From Chloroflexota bacterium (GTDB lineage Bacteria > Chloroflexota > UBA6077 > FW602-bin22 > JAMCYS01), in NCBI GenBank assembly GCA_023473795.1, contig JAMCYS010000008.1:1-34742 (forward strand): a DNA stretch of 34,742 bases, read 5' to 3'. The notes under the pieces are model-generated. The model did no database searches. It worked only from the letters and a program-made list of their open reading frames with translations, and was not told the origin of the DNA. The translations under genes were made by a program, and so were the position numbers. This document shows positions 13,942 through 34,612 of this stretch, piece by piece. Within the stretch, counting starts at the first letter, position 1; the number at the start of each line of letters is the position of its first letter.

Positions 13942-13954
13942 AGGAGGTTGAGCC

Positions 13955-18806: not shown

Positions 18807-19861
18807 TGTCTTCGTTCGTGCCGGGCTTTCTCGAGCGGCAGCCGATCACCCAGAACATCTTGCGCACGGTGCGCCTGCTGGGCGAATACAAGGGCAAGGA
18901 AACGCTCTTCAAGCAGCAGATACCGCAGGCGCTGGAGACCCTGCGCCAGGTGGCGGTTATCCAGAGCACGGAGTCGTCCAATCGCATCGAGGGTATCACC
19001 GCATCCCCCGATCGCCTGCGGGCACTGCTCGCCGACAAGACGACGCCGGGCAACCGCTCGGAACAGGAGATCCTCGGCTATCGCGACGTGCTCAGTAGCA
19101 TCCACACCAACTACCAGCACATGCCCTTGACCACGGGCATCGTCCGCCAACTGCACCGCGACCTGTACAAGTATATGGAGAGCGAGGGCGGGCGCTGGAA
19201 GCCGGTGGACAACGAAATCTCGGAGGTCCGGGCGGACGGCACGAAGGTCATCCGCTTCCGGCCCGTGCCGGCCTTCGCCACGGCCGAGCACATGGGGGCC
19301 CTGCACGAGCGCTGCCACGGGCTGTGGACGGCGGGCGAGGTGGAGAAGCTGGTCCTCATCCCGGCCTACGTGCTGGACTTCCTCTGCATCCATCCCTTCC
19401 TCGACGGCAATGGACGGATGGCGCGACTACTGAGTCTGCTCCTGCTCTACCAGGCGGGCTTCGAGGTGGGCCGCTACATCAGCCTGGAGAAGATCGTCGA
19501 GGAAACGAGGGAGAGCTACTACGACAGCCTCTACGCCTCCTCGCAGGGCTGGCACGAGAACGAGCATAGCCTTCTGCCCTGGACCGAGTACTTCCTGGGC
19601 GTACTGGTGGCCGCCTATCGGGAGTTCGAGTCGAGAGTCGGCCTCCTCGCCACAGCCCGTGGCGCCAAGACCGAGATGGTGCTGGAGGCCATCCGGCACC
19701 TGCCTCAAGACTTTCGTATGGTTGACGTGGAGCGACTATGCCCCAACGTGACTCGGGACTGGATCCGCCAGGTGTTCGCTGACCTGAAGAAGCAGGGTGT
19801 GCTGTGGTGCGAGGGCAAGGGACCGGCCGCCGTGTGGCACAAGCGCGGCAGCCTACTGTAG
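18806..19861 (+). CDS. Fic family protein (class II, N-terminal inhibitory helix)
   Basis: A 351-residue Fic enzyme, probably transferring AMP or another nucleotide from NTP to a protein hydroxyl. The catalytic loop HPFLDGNGRMAR is complete (His196 to Arg204). The N-terminal half contains S58-NRI-E62-G63, matching the (S/T)xxxE(G/N) inhibitory motif, so the enzyme should be self-restrained until triggered. The C-terminal 60 residues look like a winged helix (FRMVDVERLCPNVTRDWIRQVFADLKKQGVLWCEGKG), as in Fic/DUF4172-type proteins. GTG at 18806 overlaps the methylase TAG by one base, with AGGAGG upstream. Its place inside the methylase-ATPase operon suggests an effector or regulatory part in defence, but no target can be read from the sequence. 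Confidence 0.93.
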   Translation: MSSFVPGFLERQPITQNILRTVRLLGEYKGKETLFKQQIPQALETLRQVAVIQSTESSNRIEGITASPDRLRALLADKTTPGNRSEQEILGYRDVLSSIHTNYQHMPLTTGIVRQLHRDLYKYMESEGGRWKPVDNEISEVRADGTKVIRFRPVPAFATAEHMGALHERCHGLWTAGEVEKLVLIPAYVLDFLCIHPFLDGNGRMARLLSLLLLYQAGFEVGRYISLEKIVEETRESYYDSLYASSQGWHENEHSLLPWTEYFLGVLVAAYREFESRVGLLATARGAKTEMVLEAIRHLPQDFRMVDVERLCPNVTRDWIRQVFADLKKQGVLWCEGKGPAAVWHKRGSLL

Positions 19862-20014
19862 TTGCCTGACACGACGTTCATGGCAGGTTGCAGGGTGATG
19901 AAGAAGATGGTGAAGCAGATGACCACGACGGCGAGCACAGCGACAGCGATGGAGTAGTGGTAGTATACCACTACGTAGTAGTATTAGTAGTGGTAGTAAC
20001 TGCGGAGGTGGCCA
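19862..20014 (+). repeat. Low-complexity intergenic tract with inverted repeat
   Basis: This 153-base gap is the only real break in the defence operon. Its last half is built of GTA/GTAG units. Nine-base perfect arms GTAGTGGTA and TACCACTAC (19954-19974, loop GTA) form a hairpin. GTAGTGGTAGTA recurs at 19987-19998. The AT-rich centre could serve as a -10 region (TAGTAT). GGAGG at 20004-20008 is the ribosome site for the DUF499 gene. It could be an internal promoter or operator, or slippage-prone DNA. Confidence 0.55.
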
Positions 20015-23000
20015 ATGACGAGCAAACTGCCGTGGACCCCCTGGCGCGACGTAGTGCGGCTGCGCGAGGACCTGAAGTCGGGCGCGCTCACCCTGGCCGA
20101 GTTCGCCGCCGACCTCTACGAGGTGGTGATGGAGCGGGGGAGCAAGACCTACCGCGAGCCCGCCGAGTTCTTCGCCCTCACGTATCCCACCTACAACCTG
20201 CGCGAATTGGCCAAGGACGTGGTGCTGCGCCTGGCCGGCAAGAACGACAAGGCCGTGCGCCAGCTCGAACTCACCTACGGCGGCGGCAAAACACACACGC
20301 TCATCACTCTCTACCACCTCGTCAACGACCCCTCCCGCCTGCCCGAGCTGTCCGCGGTGCAAGAGTTCGTGCAGCACATCGGTATGGCGCCCCCTCCTAC
20401 CCGCGTTGCCGCCCTCTGCTTCGACAAGCTGGACGTCGAGAAGGGGATGGAGGTGCGCGCGCCCAGCGGGGAGAAGCGCTGGCTGAAGCAGCCGTGGAGC
20501 GTGCTCGCCTTTCAGCTGGCCGGCGCCGAGGGTCTGCGCCTTATCCACGCCGAGGGCCAGGACGCCGAGCGCGACAGCGCCCCCGCGGAGAACCTCCTCA
20601 TTAATATACTATCCCTCCCCGGTGCGGAAGGTCGCGCCACGCTCGTGCTCATCGACGAGGTGCTGCTCTACGCCCGCGAGAAGATCGGCCTCGACCCGGC
20701 CTGGCGGGGGCGCCTGGCCAGCTTCTTCCAGTACCTCACCCAGGCCGCGACCAAGGTGAACTGCTGCGCGATCGTCGCCTCGCTCCTCGCCTCGGACGTG
20801 CGGGCGGGCGATGCCCTGGGCAAGGAGATCACCCACGAATTGGCCGCCATCTTCCGCCGCGAGCGCGAGGAGGGCGTGCAGCCGGTGTTGAAAGAAGATG
20901 TCGCCGAGATCCTCCGTCGGCGTTTCTTCACGCCGGATTCGCTGCGCGACCGCGAGGCCTTCCGCCCCCACGTGGTGGCGGCGCTCAAGGGCATCGCCGA
21001 CCTCGACGAGCAGACGGCGAAAGAGGGCAAGTCCGCCGAGGAGCGGTTCCTCAAGAGCTACCCATTTCACCCCGATCTGACCGAGGTCTTCTACAGCAAG
21101 TGGACGAACTTGGAGGGCTTCCAGCGCACGCGCGGCGTGCTGCGCACCTTCGCCCTGGCCCTGCGCGCCGCCGCGCCCTGGGACGAGGCGCCCCTGGTTG
21201 GGGTGAACGTCTTTCTGGCTGAGCCCGCTGCGGAGGGCGTCTCTGAAGCCGCGCGGGAGCTGGCCAACATTGCCGGCAGCGAGGAGTACGAGGGCAAGAA
21301 GCAGGAGTGGACGGGCATCCTGGAGGGCGAGCTGACGAAGGCGCGGGCGATCGAACGCGATCTGCCCGGCCTGCGGCAGTGCGAGCTGGAGCAGGCGGTC
21401 TTCGCCACCTTCCTTCACTCCCAGCCCATCGGTCGCAAGGTCCTCACGCCCGAGCTGCTGGTGCTGCTGGGGCAAACGCGACCGGACAAGATCGACCTGG
21501 AGCAGGGTCTGCGCCGCTGGAGCGAGGAGTCGTGGTTCCTCGACGAGGGCGTGGTGTCCGACGCCGAGGCCGGCCCGGACGGGCAGAAGTTGCTGCCCAA
21601 GGCCTGGCGGCTGGGCTCGCGCCCCAACCTCAAGCAGATGCACCACGACGCCTGTAGCCGAGTGGCCGACCTGGTGGAGCCGCAGCTGCTCGAGGAGATC
21701 CGGACGCAGAAGAGCCTCACGGCGGGCGCCTCGGCCGCCGGAGCCAGGGTGCACAACCTGCCCGAGCGGCCGCGCGATATTGAGGACGACGCCGACTTCC
21801 ACTTCGCCATTCTGGGCCCGAAGGCGGCCTCCGACGCCGGCAAGCCGAGCGCCGAGGCCAAGCGCTTCCTGGATGAGACTACCGCCCCCGACCGGCCGCG
21901 CGTCTACCGCAATGCGGCAGTGCTGGCCGTGCCCTCGCCGGATGGGCTGGACGCCGCTCGCAACCGCGTGCGCGAGCACCTGGGCTGGGAGGAGGTCCGC
22001 ACCCAGCTGAAGGATCAGCCGCTCGATCCGTTACGCGAGCAGATGCTGGCCGCCAACGTGGACGGGGCGAAGAAGAAGCTGCCCGGCGCCATCCGCGACG
22101 CCTACAACGTCGTGGTGACGGTGGGCGAGGGCAACGAGGTTGCGGCCTTCAAGGTCGCGGCGGGGGATGAACCGCTGTTCACGCGCATCAAGAAGGAGGA
22201 GCGGGCGCGGATCAAGGAGACGGCGATCAGCGCCGAGGCCTTGCTGCCGGGTGGGCCGTACGATCTCTGGCGCGAGGGAGAGACGGCTCGGCGGGTGAAG
22301 GACCTGGTCACCGCCTTCGCCCAGTTCCCCCGCCTGCCGAAGATGCTGAAGTCCCAGGCCATCCTCGATACGCTTGTCAATGGCTGCCTGGAGGGCTCGT
22401 TCGTCTTGCGCCTCACCCGACCCGACCGCTCGTTCAGGACCTTCTGGCGGACGATGCCCGACGACGTTGCGCTCAAGGACTCCGGCCTAGAGGTCGTGCT
22501 GCCGGAGGCGGCCGAGCTGAGCGAAGTGCCCTCGACCTTGCTGGCCAAAGGCGCCCTGCCCGGCCTCTGGCAAGGCGATGCCATAACCGTGAAGAACGTA
22601 CTCGCCTACTTCGGCGGCGGCCACACGGTGTCCGTGCCCAAGGAGACCTACGAGGAGACTGTCATCATTCCCAAGGCCGAACGCGCGGTCGTCGAGGTGG
22701 CCATCGGCGAGGCCGTGAAGAATGGTGCCCTTTGGCTCACCAACGGTCCGGCCAGCGTCCTGTTCGAGCCCATCCCGGCGGGGCTGCTGACCGACACGGC
22801 CGTCTTGCAGACACCGCCGGCGCCGGTACCCACCACCGACCTGCTGCCCGAGGCCCTGCCGGAGGCCTGGGGCGGCGGCGTCACCACTGGCATTGCCCTC
22901 TCGGCTGCCCTTTCCGCCAAGGCCGGTAAGACTTTGCCCTGGACCACCGTGCGCCAGGCCGTCGACGGCGCCCTCCGCGCGCGCTTGCTAGAGCGCGCCG

Positions 23001-23323
23001 CCGACTCCGGCGCCTGGCCCTGCGACCTCGCAGGCGCCTCCGCGCTGAAGCTGCGAGTGCCGACCGTCCAGCCGCCGATCATCACCCCGCCGCCCGTAAC
23101 GACACCCAAGCCGGGCGTGCTGGTGGCCGAGGCCGAGCTGCAAACCGGCGAAATCCAGAACCTAGCCGAGGTGGTAGGCGACATCATCAAAGCCGCCGCC
23201 GGCTACGACCTCAAGTTCCGCCTCACCGTCGAGCTCGGCGGCAAGACGAAACCGCCGGCAGAGGTAGTGGAGAAGGTGAACACTCTTCTCAAGGAAGTCG
23301 CGCCGCAATTCAGAATCGGCTAG
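20015..23323 (+). CDS. DUF499 family ATPase
   Basis: A 1102-residue P-loop ATPase of the DUF499/COG1483 type, a large AAA-like protein related in architecture to the BrxC/PglY ATPases and typical of methylase-linked defence loci. The N-terminus PWTPWRDVVRLREDLKSGALTLAEFAADLYEVV is characteristic. Walker A is YGGGKTHTL (Lys92-Thr93). Walker B is LVLIDEVLLYAR (Asp214-Glu215), followed by NCCAIVASLLASD as a sensor-like strand. The middle includes YPFHPDLTEVFYSKW, a family signature, and GVLRTFALALR. A Pro-rich linker near residues 1010-1030 separates a small C-terminal domain with KFRLTVELGGKTKPPAEVVEKVNTLL. ATG at 20015 has GGAGG six bases upstream. It probably works with the helicase and methylase. 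Confidence 0.92.
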   Translation: MTSKLPWTPWRDVVRLREDLKSGALTLAEFAADLYEVVMERGSKTYREPAEFFALTYPTYNLRELAKDVVLRLAGKNDKAVRQLELTYGGGKTHTLITLYHLVNDPSRLPELSAVQEFVQHIGMAPPPTRVAALCFDKLDVEKGMEVRAPSGEKRWLKQPWSVLAFQLAGAEGLRLIHAEGQDAERDSAPAENLLINILSLPGAEGRATLVLIDEVLLYAREKIGLDPAWRGRLASFFQYLTQAATKVNCCAIVASLLASDVRAGDALGKEITHELAAIFRREREEGVQPVLKEDVAEILRRRFFTPDSLRDREAFRPHVVAALKGIADLDEQTAKEGKSAEERFLKSYPFHPDLTEVFYSKWTNLEGFQRTRGVLRTFALALRAAAPWDEAPLVGVNVFLAEPAAEGVSEAARELANIAGSEEYEGKKQEWTGILEGELTKARAIERDLPGLRQCELEQAVFATFLHSQPIGRKVLTPELLVLLGQTRPDKIDLEQGLRRWSEESWFLDEGVVSDAEAGPDGQKLLPKAWRLGSRPNLKQMHHDACSRVADLVEPQLLEEIRTQKSLTAGASAAGARVHNLPERPRDIEDDADFHFAILGPKAASDAGKPSAEAKRFLDETTAPDRPRVYRNAAVLAVPSPDGLDAARNRVREHLGWEEVRTQLKDQPLDPLREQMLAANVDGAKKKLPGAIRDAYNVVVTVGEGNEVAAFKVAAGDEPLFTRIKKEERARIKETAISAEALLPGGPYDLWREGETARRVKDLVTAFAQFPRLPKMLKSQAILDTLVNGCLEGSFVLRLTRPDRSFRTFWRTMPDDVALKDSGLEVVLPEAAELSEVPSTLLAKGALPGLWQGDAITVKNVLAYFGGGHTVSVPKETYEETVIIPKAERAVVEVAIGEAVKNGALWLTNGPASVLFEPIPAGLLTDTAVLQTPPAPVPTTDLLPEALPEAWGGGVTTGIALSAALSAKAGKTLPWTTVRQAVDGALRARLLERAADSGAWPCDLAGASALKLRVPTVQPPIITPPPVTTPKPGVLVAEAELQTGEIQNLAEVVGDIIKAAAGYDLKFRLTVELGGKTKPPAEVVEKVNTLLKEVAPQFRIG

Positions 23324-23351
23324 GCTGCGAGCTTGGCCGGAGGCTTGAGCA

Positions 23352-24386
23352 ATGCGCCACCCGCACACGGAATGGACCCGGCGGCGTCTGGAGGACTACG
23401 TCGGTACCACCGAAACGCTAACACTCGAGTTCAAGAGCTGTCGTGCGCTGCTCGGGGATGACAAGAAGGATAAGGATGCCAAGATGCAGGAGGCCGCCAA
23501 GGACCTAGCTGCTATGGCCAACGAGCAGGGCGGGGTGATCATCTACGGTATCGAGGAAACCAAGACCGGTACGGGCCGTCGTGCCCTACGAGTGGAGGAG
23601 GGTTTCCCGGCAGGCGGGGCAGTGTCCCGGGAGTGGTTCCTCCAGTTCGCACGCGATAGGGTTCATCCGCCACTGCACGGCCTTGAGGTGGTGGAGGTTC
23701 ATCTAGACGATCAGCATGAGCGGTTCGCTCTCGTAGTCATCGTACCTCAGGCCGTAGGCGGAGCTCGCCAGACCGATGATCTGCTTTTCTGGCGGCGGGA
23801 TGCTCAGGGGCTGCGCAAAATGACCGTGCAGGAAATCGAAGACATTCGGCTGAGAGGCAGCCGGCCCCAACTCGTTCTCTCCGCCTTTGTGCTTGAGGCG
23901 ACCAACTCCAACAACAAGCAACTCGACCTCAAGACGCAGTTCCGAGTTCACAACCCGTCATCGACTACTGCTTCCTTTGCGGTTGTCACGCTCGCCCTGA
24001 CGAGGAATACATCCGCTGCGTCCAAGGTGGTCAACGAGTGGCGCTGGCTCGAGGTGAGCGATGACTGGAAGGTAACCCGGTGTGTCCTGTCATCCGGCAG
24101 CTCGTCGTACTGGAGTCCAATTACGCCAGGATTCACCTTGGTCACCGAGGCCCTGACAATCAGCACTCCGTTCTACTCGGAGATTGATCCGGTCAGGCCA
24201 CGGGAGTTAGGACTTGCCAGGCTTGACCACGATGGAGGCTCCGACTTGTACACGTTGGTGTTGCGTTACCAAGCAGACCTCGCGAGCAAGATAAGACTCG
24301 AACCTAACCCCGAGGGGGCGCTTCCTGACCGACTGGGGGCCGCACCCGTGCCGCCTATCATATGCATCGGTCCACAACCTCACTGA
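23352..24386 (+). CDS. AlbA_2/Schlafen-type putative DNA- or nucleotide-binding protein
   Basis: A 344-residue protein, last gene of the defence locus. The N-terminal domain has LTLEFKSC, then KDLAAMANEQGGVIIYGIEETKTGTGRRA, the E-F-K...AMAN-x-GG-x-IIYGI signature of AlbA_2/Schlafen-like domains, sometimes annotated as ATP-binding. LFWRRDAQGLRKMTVQEIEDI near residue 155 completes the domain. The remaining 180 residues are a beta-rich region I do not recognise, with many Ser/Thr and LTRNTSAASKVVNEWRWLEVSDDWKV. GGAGG lies 7 bases before the ATG, 28 bases after the DUF499 stop, so cotranscription is likely. Schlafen-type domains can be nucleases in defence, but catalytic residues cannot be confirmed here. 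Confidence 0.82.
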   Translation: MRHPHTEWTRRRLEDYVGTTETLTLEFKSCRALLGDDKKDKDAKMQEAAKDLAAMANEQGGVIIYGIEETKTGTGRRALRVEEGFPAGGAVSREWFLQFARDRVHPPLHGLEVVEVHLDDQHERFALVVIVPQAVGGARQTDDLLFWRRDAQGLRKMTVQEIEDIRLRGSRPQLVLSAFVLEATNSNNKQLDLKTQFRVHNPSSTTASFAVVTLALTRNTSAASKVVNEWRWLEVSDDWKVTRCVLSSGSSSYWSPITPGFTLVTEALTISTPFYSEIDPVRPRELGLARLDHDGGSDLYTLVLRYQADLASKIRLEPNPEGALPDRLGAAPVPPIICIGPQPH

Positions 24387-24420: not shown

Positions 24421-27400
24421 CTAGTTGCCGCGCCGTGCTTCAAGGTCGGCTAGCACACGCTCGAATAGATCATTTGTCTCGCGCTCTGGTTCGCATTCAT
24501 CGAGATCGTCACCTGCGCTCCCATCGCTACCGAACGCTTCGCGTAGCGCCTTCCTCAGCCGCCTGTCCTCTTTCACTAGTGAGCTGCGGTCACCCAGTTC
24601 ATAGTAGCAGCGGTACAACTCACGCACCACATCCTCGAGCGTCGGCTCTATCTTGAGTATGCTCTTGTACAGCGGCACGGCCATGGTCGTCTGGCCCTCA
24701 TTTCTGTAGAGCCGCGCCAGCTCAGTCGTGATCCGCAAGTACTCCTCGCGGTAGTGCTCCTGGAGCGAGAGCCCGCCGTCCTCACGTTCGTGCACCCATT
24801 CATACAGTGGCTCGACCAGGAGGTCACCGGCATACAGGGCACGAGCCTCTTCGTAGGTAGCCTTCGCCTGCGCGGGCGACAGCTGTGCGGCGGACCGGCA
24901 GAGGCGCAGGAACCGCTGAGCATCCGATCCGATCATATCCGTGTTCAGACTGCAAGTGCCGTTGCGCTCGCAGCGGACCATATCCGAACTGAGTCCCGGC
25001 ACCTGTTCGGCCAGCAGTTGCCGCAGTCTGACGAGGGCCACGCTGAGCCGCTGCCCAGCGCGCTGGGGGTCGACTTCCGGCCAAAGGGCATTGAGTAGAC
25101 GCTCCTTGGAAGTACTACCGTCCGGCTGTGCCGCCAGGAAGGCCAGTATCTCCCACGGCTTGTACTGCGCCCCGCTTGATCCCTCTGGAGACAGCTCGCG
25201 GTCGCCGCTGAGGACTCGTAGCTTGCCGAAACAACGCACCACGACTCTTGTGGTGGCTGCGTCGGTACGGTCGCTCTGACTTGCGGCAGCTGGGGCTTCG
25301 GCAGTGGCCTGGCTCGTCTCCTCCAGGACCTCTGTTGTGGACTTTCCAACCACATCCAGGCCGACAGTCGCGCAGAGGGTCTTAGCGGCCACAGCGCCTA
25401 TGTCAAAAGGGGCGGTTGCGGTTGCCCCCGGGTTGCCAGCAGGGACCTCGTTGTGTAAGTCGGCTTGCTCCTCACGGGTGACCGGCGGGCAATCGGCGCC
25501 ACCCACCTCTGGCCCGCTCATACGAGCTGTACCAGACAGGGCGGTTGGCCGGATTGGATAGGCCTCGTGCATCTCCCTGAGCAACTGGTCTAGTTGTTCT
25601 ACAGAGATGCGGTACCCCCGCATGCGGACAGGTAGACGCCCATCCAGACGCACCAGCATTTCGCCTCCCCCACTGAGATCGGCAGCGGCGGGAGTGCCGA
25701 GAAGACGAATGCTCTGCTCCTCGTCGGCCGTACGCAAGACTACTCGGGTGGTGAAGTGAGCCAAGGTGGCGTCGTCGAGGGTCTCTGGGCGCTCGGTGAG
25801 GGCGATGACCCGCACACCGCAGCTCTTCCCGTAAGCTCCGATCTGATCGAGGAGCGCCATCTCGTCTTTGAGATCGGCGAGTTCCCCCAGCACCAGCACC
25901 AGGTCGGATTGGCCTCGGCCACGCTCCGCCGTGTCCATCCTCGGGCTTTCCGGCTGTTGCAGCCGGCGCGTCAACTCGGCCTGGATCTCTTCCATAGCCA
26001 TACGTAGGCCCGCTGCGTCCGTGGGGTCGATGATCTTCTTGCACTGGTGCGGTAGCTCCGATAGTTCAGGGGGCAACTTGTGGCGATCGGCGACCGTCCA
26101 GAGGCGCAGCTCGTCGGGGCGGAAGCGGGCGCCGAGGGCAGCGAGCAGACTAGTGAGGACGACGTTGCCCCCGCCTGGGCTGCCCGCGAGCAGTACGTGT
26201 TCGGTCTCGCCCCAGTGGACGTAGAAGGTCTCTTGGGCAGGCGTCACCCCCAGGGCTATGAGCGATGGCTCTGAGTTGTCGCGGCCAGAGGGCATCACAA
26301 GCATCCTCACTGCCTTCAGTCCAGTAACCTTCAGCACGGTGTCGTGGTCAGCCGTGATCTCGATGGAGACCTTGGCACCAATGCGAAAGCTGCCATCCGC
26401 AACCACGGCAAGAAGGCGCTCACGGTCCTCCGGCCCTAGACCAAGGCATAGGGATGCGGCATCGCGACGGCAGCGGGCCGAGATGATGACAGTCGCCGGG
26501 AGATCCACGTCTGCGAGCGCATGGAGAACATAACGCACAGCAGCCGTCTCTGTCTCGGAGTCCCCCGTATGGCGGCGATGGGCGAGGCCTCTGGCGAATT
26601 CCGCTTCCACGAAGCCGTCGCAAACGGGATTGTCGGCGGGTTCCCGGGCTGCCGCCGGCAACTCGCCCAGTTTGCGGCGCACGCGTCGCCGGGCGGCGAG
26701 CGCCGCGATCCCAGCGGCCGAGGCGATGCCGGCTGCCGCCACTACATGGGTGTTGTCTGTGTTCCTTTCGTCTTGCGCTTGGGCTGGTGGGGTTCCGATA
26801 GGTTGCTGTAGGGCCGGTTCCGGCGCCGTTTGCAGCTGCGCCGTGGGGCTTGCCGGCGGTTGCGATCGAGACGGGGTAGCTACTGGGGCTTCCATCGGCG
26901 CGGGAGGATCTGGCACTATAGCAGTGGTATGCGGCACCGAGACGGCGATCTCTTGATCCACATCGGGCGATGGCAACCTCAAGGTGAGCCCCGGCCAGAT
27001 GAGGTCGGGTTCGGTCAGGACGCGGCCATCCGACAGCTCAGCCTTCCCACGGTTGATGGTGAAGATCTCCGGCCAGCGCATCTCGTCGCCCAGAGTGAGG
27101 GCGGCAATGGCACGCAGGGTATCGCCCGGCTGAACGGTGTACTCCCTATGGAGGCCGCCCTCGGCGACCGATTCGTTAGGCCGAGGAATAGCCAGCACCC
27201 ATCCTGGCAGAATCACCCCTGCCTGGCTGAACTGTCGCCCACCTGGCATCTCTCTGCCGACGTTCGCTGCCACCAGCCGCGGGTATTCGTGGCCGCTGCC
27301 ATAGAAACGCTCGGCGATGGCCCAGAGACTATCGCCAGGGCGAACCGTGTAAGTGGCGGTCTGGGGTCGTGGCTCTGCAAGCTCGTGGGCGCCGCCTGGC

Positions 27401-27909
27401 GCGGATAGCGAAACGCCGAGAGTGCGGTGAGTTTCGACTACAGTCACGGGAGCGCTCGCCGTCAGGGCCGCAGCAGCGGCAGAAGGTGCTCCACGGCTGG
27501 TGACGTTGATGACGAGGATGGCGACAACGGCACCGTCGACCAAGCGCCGAACGAGAGGTAACGTGACGCTGTCGGAGATTACGCGCAAGGCCCTTGCCCA
27601 GGCTGCGCCGCTGGTGACAGACTCGGCAACAAGGGCCACCACGCGCAGAGCGAGCGAGCCGACGATCCAGAACCAGAGTCCCCAGGCGGCCATCGTCATC
27701 GTGTAGGCCACGGCTTCGCCGGGCAGGTAGCTGCCGCGGAGCATGAGGTCAATGGTGGGCCAGTCCGGGACCTCAGCCGGCAGACGAGGCGGCCCCGACA
27801 GGGTGTTAAGGACGGCTGCCCCAATCATCAGCCCTAGAATGAGCGCGACCAGTCCGAGCCATGGCCTCTTCTGAGCGATCTGCCGCTGGTATCTGACCGT
27901 CGCCTCCAC
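24421..27909 (-). CDS. Membrane LysM, FtsK/EccC-like and BTAD multidomain protein
   Basis: A 1162-residue chimeric protein. Two to three membrane helices occupy residues 17-140 (LGLVALILGLMIGAAVL and others). Two LysM domains follow at about 187-242 (YTVRPGDSLWAIAERFYG) and 256-313 (YTVQPGDTLRAIAALTLG), then another helix near AAAGIASAAGIAALAARRR. The centre resembles an FtsK/EccC-type domain but has AGSPGGGNVVL where the P-loop Lys-Ser/Thr should be. DLVLVLGELADLKDE follows as a Walker B-like strand, so it may not hydrolyse ATP. From about 890, CFGKLRVL...YKPWEILAFLAAQPDGSTSKERLLNALWPE is a SARP-type winged helix followed by a BTAD helical repeat. The GTG at 27909 is chosen because AAGGAGG is well placed upstream. 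It probably links wall or pilus state to regulation of the neighbouring Tad genes. Confidence 0.82.
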   Translation of the reverse strand: MEATVRYQRQIAQKRPWLGLVALILGLMIGAAVLNTLSGPPRLPAEVPDWPTIDLMLRGSYLPGEAVAYTMTMAAWGLWFWIVGSLALRVVALVAESVTSGAAWARALRVISDSVTLPLVRRLVDGAVVAILVINVTSRGAPSAAAAALTASAPVTVVETHRTLGVSLSAPGGAHELAEPRPQTATYTVRPGDSLWAIAERFYGSGHEYPRLVAANVGREMPGGRQFSQAGVILPGWVLAIPRPNESVAEGGLHREYTVQPGDTLRAIAALTLGDEMRWPEIFTINRGKAELSDGRVLTEPDLIWPGLTLRLPSPDVDQEIAVSVPHTTAIVPDPPAPMEAPVATPSRSQPPASPTAQLQTAPEPALQQPIGTPPAQAQDERNTDNTHVVAAAGIASAAGIAALAARRRVRRKLGELPAAAREPADNPVCDGFVEAEFARGLAHRRHTGDSETETAAVRYVLHALADVDLPATVIISARCRRDAASLCLGLGPEDRERLLAVVADGSFRIGAKVSIEITADHDTVLKVTGLKAVRMLVMPSGRDNSEPSLIALGVTPAQETFYVHWGETEHVLLAGSPGGGNVVLTSLLAALGARFRPDELRLWTVADRHKLPPELSELPHQCKKIIDPTDAAGLRMAMEEIQAELTRRLQQPESPRMDTAERGRGQSDLVLVLGELADLKDEMALLDQIGAYGKSCGVRVIALTERPETLDDATLAHFTTRVVLRTADEEQSIRLLGTPAAADLSGGGEMLVRLDGRLPVRMRGYRISVEQLDQLLREMHEAYPIRPTALSGTARMSGPEVGGADCPPVTREEQADLHNEVPAGNPGATATAPFDIGAVAAKTLCATVGLDVVGKSTTEVLEETSQATAEAPAAASQSDRTDAATTRVVVRCFGKLRVLSGDRELSPEGSSGAQYKPWEILAFLAAQPDGSTSKERLLNALWPEVDPQRAGQRLSVALVRLRQLLAEQVPGLSSDMVRCERNGTCSLNTDMIGSDAQRFLRLCRSAAQLSPAQAKATYEEARALYAGDLLVEPLYEWVHEREDGGLSLQEHYREEYLRITTELARLYRNEGQTTMAVPLYKSILKIEPTLEDVVRELYRCYYELGDRSSLVKEDRRLRKALREAFGSDGSAGDDLDECEPERETNDLFERVLADLEARRGN

Positions 27910-27929: not shown

Positions 27930-29048
27930 CTACGAACGGGTCAATACCGGCTGAACCTCCTGCACCCGGTAGCCGGCCTCGTAGACGCGCTGGACCGCCG
28001 GTAGCCCAACCCACGCGCCGCCGTTCACCCTGAACTCAGACGTGAACTCGAATGTCAGGCGGAGCGGGAAGCCACTCGGGTGCTGGAGAGAGGAGTGCTC
28101 GTAGGTGTGCTGGATGTCCGACTCGGCTGGGAACGGGCTACCCAGCGATCCTGTTACGAGGGTTGCCCCGTCACCGAATGACCACTCGTACTTGCTGGGG
28201 GAGACGCGCACTTCCACTGTGAACGAGGTCGGTTGGCGGCGGGGATCATCGGCCGGGACCACCGCCAGCGGCACCTCAGGCCCGATTTCAGGCGGTATGG
28301 ACACGGTTCGAGCTACGCCCAGAGGGCTACCATCGTATCCCTCTACCCAGAACCAGCCGGGGACGGCTACCAAGCCGAGGCCCGGGCTGGCGCGGAGCTT
28401 CACTTCCGGGAAGGGCACCTGCCCCAATGCGTTGAGTGCCACCTCACGTGGGTCGGTGCTGTTGGGATTGCCACCTGGCAAGGGCGGTGGGCTCGCTGGC
28501 GGCTGGTTGACTACTAGATTGACGTTGTTGGTGGTGTCTGGAACCCAGATCACCCCCTGGAACTGGTTGTTGATGTACAGAAGATACGGGCGCTCGTTGG
28601 GATGGGCCGCCATCTCCGCCAACCAACTATCACGAGTGGCCGTGCTGATGTTGGGCGGCATGGCATCGATCCGCTCGCCGTCGGCGGTAATCCGGTGGTA
28701 GCCAGCACGGTCGGTCCACTCGCGGGCCTGCGAAGCGGGAGGTGAGCTCTCTCCTCCCGAAGCGGGCGGCTGTTCGCCAGGAGTATACCTAACCCGCTGT
28801 GAGCCGGGTTCCCAGCTGCCTGGAACCGATCTCCGCAAGGAGATGATTACGTAGACGCCGTCTTGTCGGGTTTCGACTCTGTACTCGACTTGCACGCCAC
28901 TGGGAGGCTTGTTGCCGTCTGGCCAGAAGCTTCCGTCCGGCCCCTGCGCACTAGCCGTGGCAGTCACAAGCAGAAGCAAGACAGGGCACAAGATCATGGC
29001 CACTAGGACCGGCAGACTGTGCTGCGGCCTAGTCGTGTCGCATACCAT
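27930..29048 (-). CDS. Secreted PKD-like domain protein
   Basis: A 372-residue exported protein of unknown function. A signal peptide (LPVLVAMILCPVLLLLVTATASAQG) is followed by Pro/Ser-rich segments and beta-rich regions. The C-terminal third contains SPSKYEWSFGDGATLVTGSLG and DIQHTYEHSS, the W-x-FGDG...H-x-Y pattern of PKD-type immunoglobulin-like domains common in surface proteins. The ATG at 29048 has GGAGGG immediately upstream and overlaps the previous gene by 20 bases. Its place between pilus genes and the LysM protein suggests a surface role connected to the pilus, such as an adhesin or tip component. That is inference. Confidence 0.7.
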   Translation of the reverse strand: MVCDTTRPQHSLPVLVAMILCPVLLLLVTATASAQGPDGSFWPDGNKPPSGVQVEYRVETRQDGVYVIISLRRSVPGSWEPGSQRVRYTPGEQPPASGGESSPPASQAREWTDRAGYHRITADGERIDAMPPNISTATRDSWLAEMAAHPNERPYLLYINNQFQGVIWVPDTTNNVNLVVNQPPASPPPLPGGNPNSTDPREVALNALGQVPFPEVKLRASPGLGLVAVPGWFWVEGYDGSPLGVARTVSIPPEIGPEVPLAVVPADDPRRQPTSFTVEVRVSPSKYEWSFGDGATLVTGSLGSPFPAESDIQHTYEHSSLQHPSGFPLRLTFEFTSEFRVNGGAWVGLPAVQRVYEAGYRVQEVQPVLTRS

Positions 29049-29622
29049 CGATCACCCTCCAAGCGCCATCGATCTTCTTCAGTTCGTAAGAGACCTTCGC
29101 TATGCCACCGGGACCGGGTGTCTGAACGGCCTGTTTGCTCTGTGGATCAACGAGGTAGCTTCTGTTCAAGTACTCGTCATAGAGCCGGGCTTTGGCCTCA
29201 CCAACTTCCAGGAACGCGATCCGGTGCTCGACGACTATCCTTGCAGCTCTGCCCTGGGCTTTGAGATCGTCGATCTGCTGCCTGGTCCGTGCTAGCTCTG
29301 CCTCGGCCATCACCTCTGACAAGTGGCTGGTGTCCCGGTTCAGGAAGGCCTCGGCTCGCACCTCCCAATACCTTAGGTAGGCTGCTTCGATTTCGCGCTC
29401 CAGAGGGGAATTCGCGGTTTGCAGGTTTGATGGTTTAGTCGTTGCCAGCGCAGGGGCCGCGACAGGCGTTGCCTTGTCGCTGGCAGCCGCGCCTGTCGAA
29501 ACGGGTACGGTGTCGACCTTCGGCCTGAAGCTATCCCCCAGAACGAACGCCCCGACGATGATAGCGACAACCACCCCAAGCAGCGCAAGCCCGATCACCC
29601 AGAAGCGACGCCCCGATTGCAT
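29029..29622 (-). CDS. Membrane-anchored hypothetical protein with NTF2/IMS-like domain
   Basis: A 197-residue protein with one N-terminal membrane helix (FWVIGLALLGVVVAIIVGAFVLG). A low-complexity Ala/Thr/Pro linker leads to a C-terminal extracytoplasmic domain. The domain starts EREIEAAYLRYWEVRAEAFLNRDTSHLSEVM and ends VSYELKKIDGAWRVIDGM, the overall pattern of NTF2-like or ARC6-IMS-like alpha+beta domains. The ATG at 29622 follows AGGAGG at a good distance. Function is unknown. It is coupled to the secreted PKD-like gene. Confidence 0.6.
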   Translation of the reverse strand: MQSGRRFWVIGLALLGVVVAIIVGAFVLGDSFRPKVDTVPVSTGAAASDKATPVAAPALATTKPSNLQTANSPLEREIEAAYLRYWEVRAEAFLNRDTSHLSEVMAEAELARTRQQIDDLKAQGRAARIVVEHRIAFLEVGEAKARLYDEYLNRSYLVDPQSKQAVQTPGPGGIAKVSYELKKIDGAWRVIDGMRHD

Positions 29623-29685: not shown

Positions 29686-30153
29686 TCAGCGAATGCCCTG
29701 CTCGATGCCGTGGCGCACCTCTGCCGGCGCGGTGGCGCTGATCTGAACTGTCCGCAACCCCATGAGCCGCAAGAAACTGGTCGGCACCTCGCGTGCCACC
29801 TGCACTACCACGCGCCGCGGTTCGGCCGTAATGCTCGCCGAGAGATCCAGCCCCTGATCGCCAATGTAGGCGGCGGCAACGTCTCGGGCGCTCGCCGTAT
29901 CCAGTACCACTGTGGCTCCCGACGTCTCCCGGTACACCTGTTGGTCGATCTGCATAGCGCCCGCCCGGGCGGCGGCGTCAGCTACGTTCTGAAGGGCCCG
30001 CCGCGTGTTGAAGACCACGCCCCCGTCGATCGCCAAGCCGATAACCGACAGGAAGAGTGGCAGCATCACCACAACCCAGACGATGGCTTGGCCGCGTTGT
30101 CCCGCTGAGGCCCCCCCGAGGCGCATCCCCTGCCCGGCCGAGTCTCCGCTCAC
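29686..30153 (-). CDS. TadG/TadE-like pilus assembly protein
   Basis: A 155-residue minor pilin-like protein of the Flp/Tad system. GQRGQAIVWVVVMLPLFLSVIGLAIDGGVVF is the TadG-like N-terminal helix with the G-Q-A-V motif. RRALQNVADAAARAGAMQID follows, typical of TadG-type proteins that anchor the secretion machine. I chose the GTG at 30153 because GGGAGG lies just before it and it overlaps the upstream TAG by one base. A TTG 18 bases further upstream is possible. The C-terminal part ends with QISATAPAEV, the usual end of the periplasmic-type beta domain. Confidence 0.8.
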   Translation of the reverse strand: MSGDSAGQGMRLGGASAGQRGQAIVWVVVMLPLFLSVIGLAIDGGVVFNTRRALQNVADAAARAGAMQIDQQVYRETSGATVVLDTASARDVAAAYIGDQGLDLSASITAEPRRVVVQVAREVPTSFLRLMGLRTVQISATAPAEVRHGIEQGIR

Positions 30154-30605
30154 TACCCCCCTCCCGGCCAACGGCTGCGATAGGGATCGATCCGCTCGCT
30201 GTGTTCACTGTGGGCAACGAACCTAGCCCAGCCCATAAGCGGCAGATCGTCCAGCCGCACCATGTAGCGCACTGCGGCACGCACCTGTCCGCCGCGCCCG
30301 AAGGTGCCGGCGTCGACCGTGAGCGCGAGTGTGCCGTTGCTCAGGTTGAAGCCCGTGGCCACCTCCTGGCCCCGTGCGCTGCCACGTGCGAACGCCTGCT
30401 CGGCGTTGTTGGCGTGGGCCCCGGCCAGCGCCGCCTCGCGGGCCACGGCGGCTACCCCCAGCTGGGCCTGGGTGACACGGCCAACCCCCACCACGCCGAA
30501 GGCCAGCGATAGCAGCAGCGGCACCACGAGCGCCGTCTCGACCAGCGCCTGGCCGCGCTGGCGCATTTGCGGCTTTCTCTCCATGTTATGCATCGCGTCA
30601 ACCAT
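30153..30605 (-). CDS. TadE-like pilus protein
   Basis: A 150-residue protein with the TadE N-terminus RQRGQALVETALVVPLLLSLAFGVVGVGRV: a prepilin-like helix with Glu four residues after GQ. VAAVAREAALAGAHANNAEQAFARGSARG follows, a TadE pattern. The C-terminal domain is beta-rich. The start overlaps the previous TadE-like gene by 8 bases, so this is one operon. It acts as a pseudopilin or minor pilin. Confidence 0.82.
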   Translation of the reverse strand: MVDAMHNMERKPQMRQRGQALVETALVVPLLLSLAFGVVGVGRVTQAQLGVAAVAREAALAGAHANNAEQAFARGSARGQEVATGFNLSNGTLALTVDAGTFGRGGQVRAAVRYMVRLDDLPLMGWARFVAHSEHSERIDPYRSRWPGGG

Positions 30606-31008
30606 TCGGGCCCGCCCGGAAGCGCTCCTTACTCATCACCGACCGCGCCCACAGCGGAAGCCGGGCGTCTGCTACCCAGGGGATGATCGCCCGCAGCTCC
30701 CCGCGTGCCTCGATGGCCACGGCGTCGCCGCCGTCTGTCCCCTGCACCCTCACCTCCTCCGCCTTCGGGCCTAACGCCGCACGCAAGAGCGCCCGGGCGT
30801 GGTCCACCCCGTCGGTCAGCGTGCGGTCCTCTGCCGCCGCTACCCGCGCCCCGTCCTGCACGGCGCCGGCCACCACGTTCTGGGCGTGGCAGAAGACAGC
30901 GAACTGCACCAGAGCGATGGCCACGATGAGCAGCAGCGGGAAGGCGATGGCCACCTCGATCATTGCCTGGCCCCGCGCGCCGGCCCTTCGTGGGGAGCTG
31001 ACCATCAT
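30598..31008 (-). CDS. TadE-like pilus protein
   Basis: A 136-residue TadE-type minor pilin: ARGQAMIEVAIAFPLLLIVAIALVQFAVFCHAQNVVAGAVQDGARVAA. This is the canonical GQA-x-x-E membrane helix followed by the ARxAA segment. The first ATG (31008) overlaps the TAA of the Flp pilin gene, indicating coupling. The open frame extends far upstream to 31713, but that extension is Arg/Gly-rich and antisense-like. Three TadE/G-type genes in series is common in Flp systems. Confidence 0.84.
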   Translation of the reverse strand: MMVSSPRRAGARGQAMIEVAIAFPLLLIVAIALVQFAVFCHAQNVVAGAVQDGARVAAAEDRTLTDGVDHARALLRAALGPKAEEVRVQGTDGGDAVAIEARGELRAIIPWVADARLPLWARSVMSKERFRAGPNG

Positions 31009-31223
31009 TAGGCACCCAACCCGGCGATGGCGTTCAGGATGTTCTGGAAGACCTGGATAATGCCGCCGCCCAGGGCCTGTATGGCGGCCAGCGCGGCGAC
31101 GGCGATGAGGGCGGCGATCATGGCGTACTCCACCATCGACTGCCCCCGCTGGCCGAGTCCAGAGCGCCCGGCGTGCTTCACTAGCCAGTCTCTTGCCAAC
31201 AGAGTCATCACTTCTGGCCACAT
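31008..31223 (-). CDS. flp: Flp/Fap-type pilin
   Basis: A 71-residue major pilin precursor. It has a short basic leader, then GQRGQSMVEYAMIAALIAVAALAAIQALGGGI. The G...VEYA-hydrophobic pattern is the Flp prepilin signature. The prepilin peptidase would cut just before the hydrophobic stretch. Start at 31223, with GGGAGG upstream; an internal ATG at 31208 is possible. It lies between tadC and the TadE-like genes. No prepilin peptidase gene is in the window. Confidence 0.88.
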   Translation of the reverse strand: MWPEVMTLLARDWLVKHAGRSGLGQRGQSMVEYAMIAALIAVAALAAIQALGGGIIQVFQNILNAIAGLGA

Positions 31224-31268
31224 TGTTGAATCCCGACCTCCCGTTGAGTTCTCGCGGTACCTGCGGGC

Positions 31269-32237
31269 TCAGCCGCCGAGCCGCATGATGTCTACTGCCG
31301 CCGGCACCAGGAGCACGACGAAGAGCGCCGGCAGGATGAAGAGCGCCACCGGGATAACCATCCGCACGCTGGCCTTGCCGCCCTCCTCCAGGATACGCAG
31401 GCGCTTCTGCTCGCGGAGAGCCTCCGCCTGCGTCGAGAGGGCCTGCACGAGGGGGAGCCCCTGCTCGTGGGCTGCCGCCAGCTGCCCCGCCACTACCCCG
31501 ACCTCCGGCACCACGTTCCGCTCGGCCATATCGGCAAGAGCCTCCCCCAGGGAGCTCCGGCCGAGGGCCATCTCGCGCACGACCAGCTGCAGTTCCCCGG
31601 CGACGACGCCCCGACTCTCGCGCACCACGACCGCCAGGGCCTGCTCCAGCCCCAGACCCGCCGAGCAGGCGATGGTCAGCATGTCGAGAACGATCGGCAG
31701 CTCCATCAGACACCGCAGCCGCAGCACCGCTACCCGGCGCTCGACTTCCCAGTCCGGCATCAGGAAGCCGACGAGGAAGCCCAGACCCCAGACCCAGACG
31801 GGCCAGACGCCGAAGGGGTGGATGCCGAGCGCGTTCATCAGGGGGAAGACGCCCAGGCCGATGAGGCCCGAGACCACCTTCTCGCCGAAGAAATGCGCCG
31901 GCTCAACCCCCGGCCGCACGAGGGCCAGCCGCCGCGCCAACTCCTCCCCGCCGCCGAGGCCGAAGCGCCCGAGCCCCCTGCGGATGAGGCGGCCCAGGTC
32001 GTCGAGGACCGGGCGCAGCATCGCCTCCAGGAGGCGCGAGGCGAAGACCCGACGGACTTCCCGCCGTTCCACCTCGGCCCGAATGCGCTCGTCCACATCA
32101 AGGCGGCGCAACCGTTCGGCAAGCCCGGGCTTCGGCCGCCCGATGGGCTGGGCTATGAGCAGGAGGTAGGCGCCTAGGCCGAAGAGAAGCGGCCAGAAGA
32201 CGACGGCCCACGGCAGCGGCGTCATGTCTTCGATCAC
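31269..32237 (-). CDS. tadC: TadC-like pilus platform protein
   Basis: A 322-residue inner-membrane protein of the GspF/TadC family that forms the pilus assembly platform with TadB. It has an N-terminal helix (WAVVFWPLLFGLGAYLLLIAQP), a cytoplasmic region, then two central helices around GLIGLGVFPLMNAL and WVWGLGFLVGFLMPDWEVERR. The GspF domain follows with LRCLMELPIVLDMLTIACSAGLGLEQALAVVVRE and LGEALADMAERNVVPEVGVVAGQLAAAHEQGLPLVQAL. The last helices (RMVIPVALFILPALFVVLLVPAAVDIM) are typical. I prefer the GTG at 32237, which overlaps the tadB stop (GTGA). ATG 32225 is the alternative. Confidence 0.86.
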   Translation of the reverse strand: MIEDMTPLPWAVVFWPLLFGLGAYLLLIAQPIGRPKPGLAERLRRLDVDERIRAEVERREVRRVFASRLLEAMLRPVLDDLGRLIRRGLGRFGLGGGEELARRLALVRPGVEPAHFFGEKVVSGLIGLGVFPLMNALGIHPFGVWPVWVWGLGFLVGFLMPDWEVERRVAVLRLRCLMELPIVLDMLTIACSAGLGLEQALAVVVRESRGVVAGELQLVVREMALGRSSLGEALADMAERNVVPEVGVVAGQLAAAHEQGLPLVQALSTQAEALREQKRLRILEEGGKASVRMVIPVALFILPALFVVLLVPAAVDIMRLGG

Positions 32238-33087
32238 CGCAGCACCCGCGGCTCGTCCGGCAGACGGGTGATCCAGAGCATTCCCAGGTAGCCCAGCGCG
32301 ATGCTGCCGAGGCACCCCAGGAGCAGCAGCTGTCCCGACCACTCGTCGAAGAGGGCTAGGTACCCCGGGTTGAGATTGCGGATGACGACCAGCAGCACGA
32401 GCGGCACGGCGGCGACAACTCGCGCCGAGAGCACGTTGCGCGCCTGGAAGGCCCGCAGCTCCTCCTGCACCCGCAGCTGGGCTCGCGTAGCGTGGGCGAG
32501 ACGGTCGAGCACCTGGCTAACGTTGCGTCCGCCCAGGCGGTCGTTGAGGAGGAGGCTGGCGGCCACCACGTCGAACACCGGATCGGCCAGACGCTCGCGC
32601 ATCGCCCCCAATGCAGGCGCGAAGTCCAGCAGGCGCATCTCCCGAGCGAGGGTCGTGAACTCGGGACGCAGGTCTCGGGGCCGTTGCGGGCCAGCGCCAC
32701 CAGTCCCTCCTGCACGGAGAAGCCGGTGGCTATACTGTCGCGCAGCTGCGCCATCGCCTCCACCAGCGCTCGCTGGGTGGCGGCCCGCCGCCGGTCGTGG
32801 CGGCGCACGTAGTACAGAAACGGCGCGGCCAGGCCAAGGCCGCAGGCGAAGAGGCTCGCGATCCCCCAGGCAAGGAACGCCTGGGCCACGAGGCCGCTGA
32901 GAGCGCCGGTGCCCAGCGAGAAGAGGAGGAAGTCGCGCGGGGAGACCTCAGGCAGGCCCGCCCGGACGAGGAACTCCTCCACCCTGCGCAAGCGCCGCCG
33001 CTCCACGGGGGGCCGCGGGTTGGTCAGCCCCTCGTAGACGAGGTAAACCCCGATACCGAATCCGAGCGATAGCAGCAGCGGCACCAC
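32234..33087 (-). pseudogene. tadB: tadB-like pilus platform gene, frameshifted
   Basis: The TadB/GspF-family partner of TadC. It is split by a frameshift near 32672. The first frame encodes the N-terminal helices (VPLLLSLGFGIGVYLVYEGL, FLAWGIASLFACGLGLAAPFLYYV) and the start of the GspF domain (MAQLRDSIATGFSVQEGLVALARNGPE). The second frame resumes with LRPEFTTLAREM and continues through NDRLGGRNVSQVLDRLAHATRAQLRVQEELRAFQARNV to two further helices. Restoring the expected GPE-x-LRPEF needs one extra base. Everything else is intact, so a single-base error in the sequence is as likely as real decay. Start GTG 33087 with GGAGAGG upstream. Confidence 0.82.
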
Positions 33088-33203: not shown

Positions 33204-34612
33204 TCACTGTGGGCTCTCCAGCGACGTGGGAGGCGCGTAGGCGACGCCCCTGGCGGCAATCTTCGCCAGACAACGCGGATGTATGCCCGTCCAGGCTAGG
33301 CCCTCGCCGCCTTGCTCCAGGGCCCACAGCTCGTTGCCGGTGACGACGTTTCCCTCCAAACCCGTAACCTCGAAGATGCTCGCCAGACGCCGCCGGCCCG
33401 TCCGGGGCTCGAAGTGCAGCTGGAGCACAAGCTCCACCGTGCGTGCCACCATCTTCGTTAGCGCCTCTCCCGCGAGACGCTCCTCCGCCATCATGGCGAG
33501 CGTCACCAGCCGGTCCAGGGCGTCGCGGGGCGAGTTGCCGTGGATGGTGGTGAGCGAGCCTTCGTGGCCGGTGTTCATCGCCAGGAGCATGTCCAGCGCC
33601 TCTGCGCCCCTCACCTCGCCCACGACGATGCGGGTGGGGCGCATGCGCAGGGCGTTGCGAACCAGGTCGCGGATGCGGATCTCCCCCGCCCCCTCGACGT
33701 TGGAGGCGCGCGCCTGCAGGGCCACGCAGTCGGGTAGGTGGCGGTCCAGCTGCAGCTCGGCCACCTCCTCCACGGTGATCACCCGCTCCTCCAGGGAGGA
33801 GATGGCGGCACCCAGAGCATTGAGGAAGGTGGTCTTGCCACTGCCTGTGGGTCCGCTCACCAGGATGTTGACGCCGGCCTGCACGGCCGCCTCAAGGAAG
33901 CGTGCTGCACCCTCCGTGAGGGAGCCCAGGTCGACGAGGTGTTCGAGGGAGTGGGCGCGCAGGATGAACTTGCGGATGGTGAGGGCGCACCAGCGGGTGG
34001 TGGCCGGCGGGATGGCGGCGTTGAGGCGCGAGCCGTCTGGGAGGCGCGCGTCAACCATCGGCGAGGACTCGTCGAGCCGCCTGCCCAGGGGCCCTATGAG
34101 GCGCTTCACCAGGCCCCGCAGCTCCTCGTCGTCTTCGAAGTAGAGGTCGCGGACCAGGCGCTTGCGCCCACCATCGATGACGAACACCCGCCCCGGGCCG
34201 TTGCAGATGATCTCCTCTACCTCGGGGTCCTCCAGCAGCGGCTGCAGGGGTCCGAGTCCCAGGAGGGAGGCGAAGAGCCGTTGCAGATGATCTCCTCCAC
34301 TCCCGAGGCCTCCATCAGTGGCTGGAGGATGCCCAGACGAAGCAGGGCGTCGAAGAGGCGCCGCTCGACCCCCTCGGGCTCAACGAGCAGGGGTGAGTTG
34401 GTCGTCGCCGCCCTGCGCTGGTAGGCGGCCACGCGCTCGCCGATGAGGGCGCGTATGCGCTCCTCGTCCCCGGGGCCGGGCGAGAGCTGTTGGCGCTCGC
34501 CCAGTAGGCGGCTCACCTCGGCTCTGATCTCCTCGCGCAGGGCCCGTTCCCCGGCGCGGTCGGCATGGGCCGTGCCGTTCGGACTAACGTACGCCTGTCG
34601 CCTGTCTGCCAC
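33204..34612 (-). pseudogene. tadA: tadA/cpaF-type pilus ATPase, frameshifted by an 80-bp imperfect duplication
   Basis: The hexameric assembly ATPase of the Flp pilus. The downstream frame (to 33204) is complete for the motor: VSGPTGSGKTTFLNAL (Walker A), RVITVEEVAELQL (Asp-box-like), IVVGEVRGAEALDMLLAMNTGHEGSLTTIHGNSPRDAL (Walker B and His box). The upstream frame (GTG 34612) gives the N-terminal domain up to LLRLGILQPLMEASGVEEIICNG, then goes out of frame. The next 80 bases encode nearly the same segment again (SLLGLGPLQPLLEDPEVEEIICNG), followed by PGRVFVIDGG in the correct continuation. So the break comes from an imperfect 80-base duplication, not a multiple of three. This may be decay, paralogue recombination or misassembly. 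Confidence 0.85.
34198..34297. repeat. Direct repeat pair in tadA (20-base cores 80 bases apart)
   Basis: CCGTTGCAGATGATCTCCTC occurs at 34198-34217 and exactly again at 34278-34297. The flanking sequence is a diverged copy of the same coding segment (LQPL-x-E-x-x-VEEIICNG), so the repeat marks an imperfect tandem duplication within tadA. The 80-base period causes the frameshift. Confidence 0.9.

What the first reader, a model, noticed from the sequence alone, without database searches (positions are those of the whole stretch)
24421..27909. LysM wall-binding, degenerate FtsK-like and BTAD regulator fused in one membrane protein
The protein joins two LysM domains, a domain with AGSPGGGNVVL in place of a true P-loop and a LGELADLKDE strand, and a SARP-type winged helix with BTAD. 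A transcription-factor domain tethered to the membrane together with wall-binding modules suggests direct sensing of wall or pilus status. The missing Lys/Thr implies a non-hydrolysing scaffold.
Basis: partly seen in the sequence, partly recalled or inferred. Interest (0 to 1): 0.52.

Follow-up and report, generated by a model that had tools for sequence, protein, structure and literature searches.

The report
Wall-anchored regulator-like protein of Tad pili
A large membrane protein joins a cell-wall grip outside, a dead secretion-motor domain inside and a gene-switch domain at its tail, and its relatives nearly always sit in the gene cluster for one kind of adhesive pilus, so the pilus base and a gene regulator may be the same molecule.

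Summary
The gene is on the minus strand, 24421-27909, with a GTG start and AAGGAGG upstream. It encodes three N-terminal membrane helices, two LysM domains, a fourth helix followed by RRRVRRK, an FtsK/EccC-fold domain without a P-loop lysine, a disordered linker, and an OmpR-type winged helix plus BTAD. AlphaFold models and PDB matches support both cytoplasmic folds: EssC Z 24.9, FtsK Z 24.5, AfsR Z 18.5. The family is widespread in Chloroflexota and Actinomycetota. It lies downstream of tadA-B-C-flp-TadE/G on the same strand in 36 of 41 distinct copies with enough flank. None of 51 distinct family ORFs has a Walker A motif in the EccC-like domain. The arginine matching AfsR R94 (a DNA-phosphate contact) is present in 43 of 43 winged helices; base-reading R92 is kept in 16 of 17 Chloroflexota copies but only 11 of 26 actinobacterial ones. 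Best reading: a peptidoglycan-anchored pseudo-EccC component of a Tad-pilus subtype that also acts as a membrane-tethered SARP-type regulator. DNA binding, sensing and regulation are inferred; a pure scaffold remains a serious rival. Prior print found here only tabulates 'LysM, BTAD' for the Cutibacterium acnes copy.

The parts
24421..27909 (-). coding sequence of the LysM / pseudo-EccC / winged helix-BTAD membrane protein; GTG start at 27909
27808..27864 (-). transmembrane helix 1 (residues 51-69 of the 1197-aa frame)
   Evidence: hydropathy scan
27625..27681 (-). transmembrane helix 2 (residues 112-130)
   Evidence: hydropathy scan
27508..27564 (-). transmembrane helix 3 (residues 151-169), weaker
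   Evidence: hydropathy scan
27184..27351 (-). LysM domain 1 (about residues 222-277)
   Evidence: Pfam PF01476, NCBIfam NF008399; borders from alignment
26971..27141 (-). LysM domain 2 (about residues 292-348)
   Evidence: Pfam second stretch; borders from alignment
26692..26748 (-). transmembrane helix 4 (residues 423-441) followed by RRRVRRK, placing the rest in the cytoplasm
   Evidence: positive-inside rule (established knowledge)
25558..26628 (-). pseudo-ATPase domain of FtsK/EccC fold (residues 463-819)
   Evidence: profile vs PDB; AlphaFold model; fold searches
26155..26187 (-). degenerate P-loop AGSPGGGNVVL (residues 610-620), no Lys
25870..25902 (-). Walker B-like strand LVLVLGELADL (residues 705-715), D lost, E kept
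25255..25536 (-). disordered linker (residues 827-920)
   Evidence: pLDDT below 50
24925..25248 (-). OmpR-type winged helix (residues 923-1030); recognition helix about 983-1004 with R996 and R998
24517..24924 (-). BTAD domain (residues 1031-1166)
   Evidence: Pfam PF03704; fold
27930..29048 (-). conserved upstream neighbour with a weak PKD match, present in most Chloroflexota copies of the locus
29029..29622 (-). conserved upstream neighbour, 197 aa, one N-terminal hydrophobic stretch
30153..30605 (-). TadE-like minor pilin 2
   Evidence: Pfam PF07811 2.1e-09
30598..31713 (-). open frame whose C-terminal part is a TadE-like minor pilin; the true start lies inside this frame
   Evidence: Pfam PF07811 1e-09 at residues 248-290
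31008..31223 (-). Flp-like pilin, 71 aa, with GQSMVEYAM
   Evidence: the G/xxxxEY motif is named in PMC4322843
31269..32342 (-). tadC (T2SSF)
32237..33087 (-). tadB, frame broken around 32659-32680
33204..34187 (-). tadA ATPase (T2SSE; TIGR03819 1e-75)

Best explanation
It is a dedicated component of one subtype of the Tad (Flp) pilus machine that doubles as a membrane-tethered SARP-type regulator. Shown by sequence and models: LysM domains, four predicted membrane helices, an FtsK/EccC-fold domain without Walker A Lys or Walker B Asp just after the last helix, and a flexible linker to a winged helix-BTAD unit folded like AfsR/EmbR. Also shown: an almost fixed place after the tad structural genes. 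Inferred: LysM grips peptidoglycan around the pilus base; the pseudo-ATPase is a non-hydrolysing docking or switch module, like the degenerate DUF domain of EccC, that reports the state of the pilus machine or wall; the winged helix-BTAD unit binds a promoter, most simply the tad operon's own, and engages RNA polymerase as AfsR does.
For: Folds: model of residues 440-1197, mean pLDDT 82.9, matches FtsK, EccC/EssC, EmbR and AfsR. A Nocardioides copy at about 13% identity gives the same two folds, EccC5 DUF Z 14.8 and AfsR Z 12.9. Synteny: 36 of 41 distinct copies with 2.5 kb or more upstream have same-strand tad genes there, none on the opposite strand; the annotated TadG-like gene and this gene overlap by 4 bp in the Cutibacterium and Brachybacterium plasmids. 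Subtype link: in 201 Chloroflexota genomes, 8 carry a TadA at least 69% identical to the window's and all 8 carry this protein; 124 carry some TadA and 9 carry this protein. DNA-binding signs: R94 equivalent 43 of 43; W74 33 of 43; R92 16 of 17 in Chloroflexota; recognition helix net charge mean +3.6, minimum +1, while the rest of the C-terminal part averages -0.74 per 15 residues. AfsR contacts from PMC10936776 (passages). Precedent for a dead ATPase next to the membrane: EccC5 DUF, PMC11154593 (passages).
Against: No DNA site or target gene is known. The direct-repeat scan was negative. Eight of the 12 AfsR contact residues differ in the window protein. In actinobacteria R92 is kept in only 11 of 26 and the W74 segment is missing in 7 of 26. 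Pfam sees no BTAD in six of nine actinobacterial proteins scanned (L021, L022, L119, L120, L053, L059 lack it; L121, L082, L048 have it). Three Propionibacteriaceae copies (L061, L063, L056) have no tad genes in the flank seen. A regulator fixed to wall and membrane can reach DNA only if the promoter comes to it.
Confidence: 0.48

Rival explanations
1. Pure scaffold: the protein anchors the Tad base to peptidoglycan and holds the motor. The pseudo-ATPase and the TPR-like BTAD are protein-docking modules, and the winged helix no longer acts on promoters.
For: Fixed place among structural genes. Dead ATPase domains in EccC are proposed structural or regulatory parts (PMC11154593, passages). A LysM-fused PilO is discussed as an envelope anchor for the archaellum in Chloroflexota (PMC13319060, passages). 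The winged helix is divergent in many actinobacteria.
Against: One phosphate-contact arginine is kept in 43 of 43 and the recognition helix is always positive in an otherwise acidic part. A pure scaffold has no clear need for a whole SARP unit.
Confidence: 0.35
2. DNA tether: the winged helix holds plasmid or incoming DNA at the wall-anchored pilus base, serving DNA uptake, transfer or plasmid positioning instead of transcription.
For: 228 of 72,556 plasmid records match a family member from Brachybacterium. Tad genes are required for natural transformation in Micrococcus luteus (PMC4322843, passages). The middle domain has the fold of DNA translocases.
Against: The family also occurs in many genome contigs not known to be plasmids. 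The fold of the C-terminal unit is that of a transcription activator. No ATP-driven DNA translocation is expected without the Walker Lys.
Confidence: 0.1
3. Chance fusion or assembly artefact in one metagenome-derived contig.
For: The tadB frame in this contig is broken, so small errors may exist.
Against: Full-length, collinear relatives in many independent genomes and plasmids.
Confidence: 0.01

Closest known systems
PAGK_2369 of Cutibacterium acnes plasmid pIMPLE-HL096PA1 (Table 2 of PMC3666418), now annotated LysM peptidoglycan-binding domain-containing protein
   Same: Same place after tadA, two T2SSF-type genes, a short pilin-like gene and TadE/TadG; the paper's table lists Pfam LysM and BTAD
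   Different: The paper calls it TadB and gives no function; Pfam here finds LysM and a weak HTH but no BTAD in it
AfsR / EmbR (SARP-type regulators)
   Same: Winged helix plus BTAD, Z 18.5 and 17.6; part of the DNA-contact residues
   Different: AfsR adds a nucleotide-binding NOD and TPR domain, EmbR an FHA domain; neither has LysM, membrane helices or an FtsK-fold domain (recalled)
EccC / EssC of type VII secretion, especially the degenerate EccC5 DUF domain
   Same: FtsK-fold domain without working Walker motifs close to the membrane
   Different: EccC has further, in part active, ATPase domains and drives protein secretion; here there is one dead domain and a regulator tail
ToxR / CadC membrane-tethered OmpR-type regulators (recalled)
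   Same: One-component regulator with an OmpR-type winged helix fixed to the membrane
   Different: They carry the winged helix at the N-terminus, no BTAD, LysM or FtsK-fold domain
PilO-LysM of Litorilinea aerophila (PMC13319060)
   Same: A LysM-bearing part of a filament system in Chloroflexota
   Different: PilO homologue; no regulator domain is described for it

Membership tests
SARP/BTAD regulators | OmpR-type winged helix followed by BTAD | tested here: met
   Pfam BTAD above cut-off, Trans_reg_C below cut-off; fold match to AfsR Z 18.5, 240 residues, 3.7 A
SARP/BTAD regulators | DNA-contact residues of AfsR kept | tested here: inconclusive
   Window keeps W74, P79, R92, R94 equivalents; 8 of 12 differ
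SARP/BTAD regulators | binds promoter direct repeats and activates transcription | not testable with these tools
   11-bp repeat scan near five operons gave no excess; no binding data
FtsK/EccC ATPases | FtsK/EccC fold | tested here: met
FtsK/EccC ATPases | Walker A GxxxxGK[ST] and Walker B hhhhDE | tested here: not met
   0 of 51 distinct family ORFs have Walker A in this domain (region aligned in 31); Walker B Asp lost in the window
LysM proteins | LysM domains above Pfam cut-off | tested here: met
   41.2 bits against 20.9, two stretches
LysM proteins | binds peptidoglycan | not testable with these tools
   no experiment
Tad pilus machinery | encoded with the tad genes | tested here: met
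   36 of 41 distinct copies; window included
Tad pilus machinery | required for pilus assembly or regulation | not testable with these tools
   no mutant found in the papers listed
Membrane-tethered one-component regulators | DNA-binding domain on the cytoplasmic side of a membrane anchor | tested here: inconclusive
   helix 4 followed by RRRVRRK and then the winged helix; hydropathy prediction only, DNA binding not shown

The most novel reading that the evidence does not exclude
In this Tad subtype the wall-anchored pilus base and its transcription activator are one polypeptide: a dead EccC-like domain reads the state of the assembling pilus and lets a membrane-fixed SARP unit draw the tad promoter and RNA polymerase to the envelope, so that pilus genes are switched on where and when the machine sits in the wall.
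Probability: 0.33. Interest if true: 0.78.

Novelty: new variant of a known kind. Interest (0 to 1): 0.55.

Why it matters
More than two hundred actinobacterial plasmid records and several Chloroflexota lineages carry this protein, mostly under the name 'LysM peptidoglycan-binding domain-containing protein'. If the reading is right, it gives monoderm Tad pili a wall anchor, explains how a pilus could control its own genes, and shows that a T7SS-type pseudo-ATPase fold has been used outside secretion. It is directly testable in Streptomyces laboratory strains.

Tried and rejected
Plus-strand reading of 24421-27909 has many stops. Chance or assembly fusion: rejected by full-length relatives. Is the GxxxxGKS at residue 885 a displaced P-loop? 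Rejected: it lies in the disordered linker. Do non-family FtsK relatives also lack Lys? No: L017 and L019 keep GATGSGKS. SARP-like direct repeats at 11-bp spacing upstream of five actinobacterial tad operons: 2 windows at spacing 11 against 0 to 21 at other spacings, no signal; the window's own tad promoter is beyond the contig end. Link with eCIS loci, where LysM and BTAD are listed among shell domains: no fusion is described in the passages seen (PMC8213781). T7SSg is described in Acetivibrio and Paenibacillus, and T7SSg and T7SSh loci lie next to Tad genes (PMC11217815, passages); whether the pseudo-EccC here descends from such a system was not tested. Papers searched for a described function; none found, but the library holds only open-licence papers.

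Row losses: 7 duplicate ORFs dropped before the synteny count, and the family set is defined by profile score above 100 bits in loci gathered by similarity; L078 dropped from the winged-helix count because its frame ends before that domain (it had been counted). L009 was not in that set. The 5 of 41 copies without tad genes: two ORFs of one split copy in L038, and L061, L063, L056. In one search and the lists are a second look at Foldseek's own hits, so folds not listed are not excluded.

Full report
What is there. The gene lies on the minus strand, 24421-27909, with GTG start and AAGGAGG eight bases before it. Residue numbers below are those of the longer 1197-aa frame that begins at 28014; subtract 35 for the likely true start. 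Hydropathy gives helices at 51-69, 112-130, 151-169 and 423-441, the last followed by RRRVRRK. By the positive-inside rule this puts the LysM pair (222-348) outside and everything after 441 inside. The same pattern appears in most of the 19 members scanned in that call, although one or more helices fall below the cut-off in some (for instance L026 shows one).

The middle domain. A profile of 11 Chloroflexota members finds EccC5 (1.9e-25), other EccC/EssC chains and FtsK (4.7e-14) among solved structures. The AlphaFold model of residues 440-1197 (mean pLDDT 82.9, pTM 0.60) matches EssC domains 2-3 (Z 24.9, 2.4 A, 252 residues) and FtsK (Z 24.5, 2.8 A, 261 residues). The P-loop stretch of close relatives reads like GLPGGGxxVVLTSL; the window has one residue fewer, GSPGGGNVVLTSL. 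None of 51 distinct family ORFs has GxxxxGK[ST] in this domain; the stretch could be aligned in 31 of them. FtsK relatives outside the family in L017 and L019 keep it. The Walker B Asp is G in the window while the Glu stays. Actinobacterial copies lose the glycines too, much as the EccC5 DUF domain does, which showed no nucleotide binding in solution (PMC11154593, passages). That DUF domain heads the list for a Nocardioides copy (Z 14.8, 3.5 A, 193 residues), tied with FtsK (Z 14.1).

The tail. Residues 923-1197 fold as winged helix plus BTAD and match AfsR in its transcription complex (Z 18.5, 3.7 A, 240 residues) and EmbR (17.6). The Nocardioides copy matches AfsR at Z 12.9, although Pfam sees no BTAD in it; that Z is in the range where helical domains can match by arrangement alone, so for that copy the sequence motif and position carry equal weight. 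PMC10936776 (passages) lists the AfsR DNA contacts. Aligned to them, the window keeps W74, P79, R92 and R94, has K952 at Q48, and differs at the rest. Over 43 winged helices: R94 43 of 43, W74 33 of 43, R92 16 of 17 Chloroflexota and 11 of 26 actinobacteria, K or R at Q48 16 of 17 Chloroflexota. The recognition helix carries net charge +1 or more in all 43, mean +3.6, against -0.74 per 15 residues elsewhere in the C-terminal part. R94 may be kept for structure, so this supports DNA binding without proving it.

Where it occurs. In 61 genomes of kin, long matches occur in 12, up to three full-length copies in one genome. Among plasmids, 228 of 72,556 records match a Brachybacterium member, 55 over at least 80% of its length: Streptomyces 146, Rhodococcus 29 and others. 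Of 54 distinct family ORFs in the loci held, 41 have at least 2.5 kb upstream and 36 of these have tad genes there on the same strand; 25 of 29 with at least 8 kb have tadA. In annotated plasmids the order is SAF-domain protein, a further protein, CpaF/TadA, two T2SSF-type proteins, a short pilin-like protein, TadE, TadE/G, then this gene. The set was gathered by similarity, so these are not random samples. Among 201 Chloroflexota genomes, the window's TadA has relatives at 69% identity or more in 8 genomes, and the listed rows show nothing between that and 54%; all 8 have the fusion. The fusion is in 9 of 201 (E up to 1e-30), some TadA in 124. The ninth, G025, has its copy cut by a contig end. 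The window's own genome has two more TadA-like genes at 48-50% identity and no second fusion. So within this phylum the protein marks one Tad subtype.

How it may work. The order of parts suggests that the LysM pair fixes the base in peptidoglycan, the dead EccC-like domain at the membrane docks to the pilus machine or another protein, and the tethered SARP unit acts on DNA. The best-supported reading is a Tad component with a regulatory tail; a pure scaffold is not far behind. DNA tethering is possible, given the plasmid setting and the need for tad genes in Micrococcus transformation (PMC4322843, passages). Every functional step (wall binding, docking, sensing, promoter binding, activation) is inferred.

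What is known. Table 2 of PMC3666418 (passages) lists the Cutibacterium acnes copy with Pfam LysM and BTAD and calls it TadB. In plasmid-positive Cutibacterium acnes a TadE2 protein from such a locus was detected and appendages were seen, which the authors could not firmly identify as Flp pili (PMC5696575, passages). No description of function or of the pseudo-EccC domain came up. The kinds (membrane-tethered OmpR-type regulator; Tad component) are known; the combination is a new variant.

Noticed in passing
window 10333-24386, + strand: A defence island between a conjugation block and the tad operon: HmaA helicase (1.3e-153), HmaB methylase (4.8e-105), HmaC/DUF499 ATPase (3.6e-78), with Fic (SoFic model 1.2e-36), a small protein matching PD-Lambda-3_B and Aga_HEPN models, and a Schlafen AlbA_2 protein.
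   Followed up: partly
window 15210-18806, about residues 350-454: A DUF559 endonuclease domain (3.8e-30) sits in frame inside the HmaB-like methylase, flanked by proline/glycine-rich strings such as PHPLAPSPLSGEGVGGE that look like a mobile repeat (the likeness is recalled).
   Followed up: no
window 32237-33087, - strand: tadB is split between two frames near 32659-32680 relative to intact relatives of about 286 aa; assembly error or a real break.
   Followed up: partly
window 2593-10000, - strand: Conjugation-type genes: TraG/VirB4-like ATPase, TrbL-like protein, lytic transglycosylase, DnaG-like primase, PEGA/WD40-like protein.
   Followed up: no
L061, L063, L056: Propionibacteriaceae copies of the family without tad genes in the flank seen; the winged helix there is shortened.
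   Followed up: partly
L038 8484-11731: A family copy split into two overlapping ORFs of 533 and 555 aa, with a homologue of the window's PKD-like neighbour upstream.
   Followed up: no
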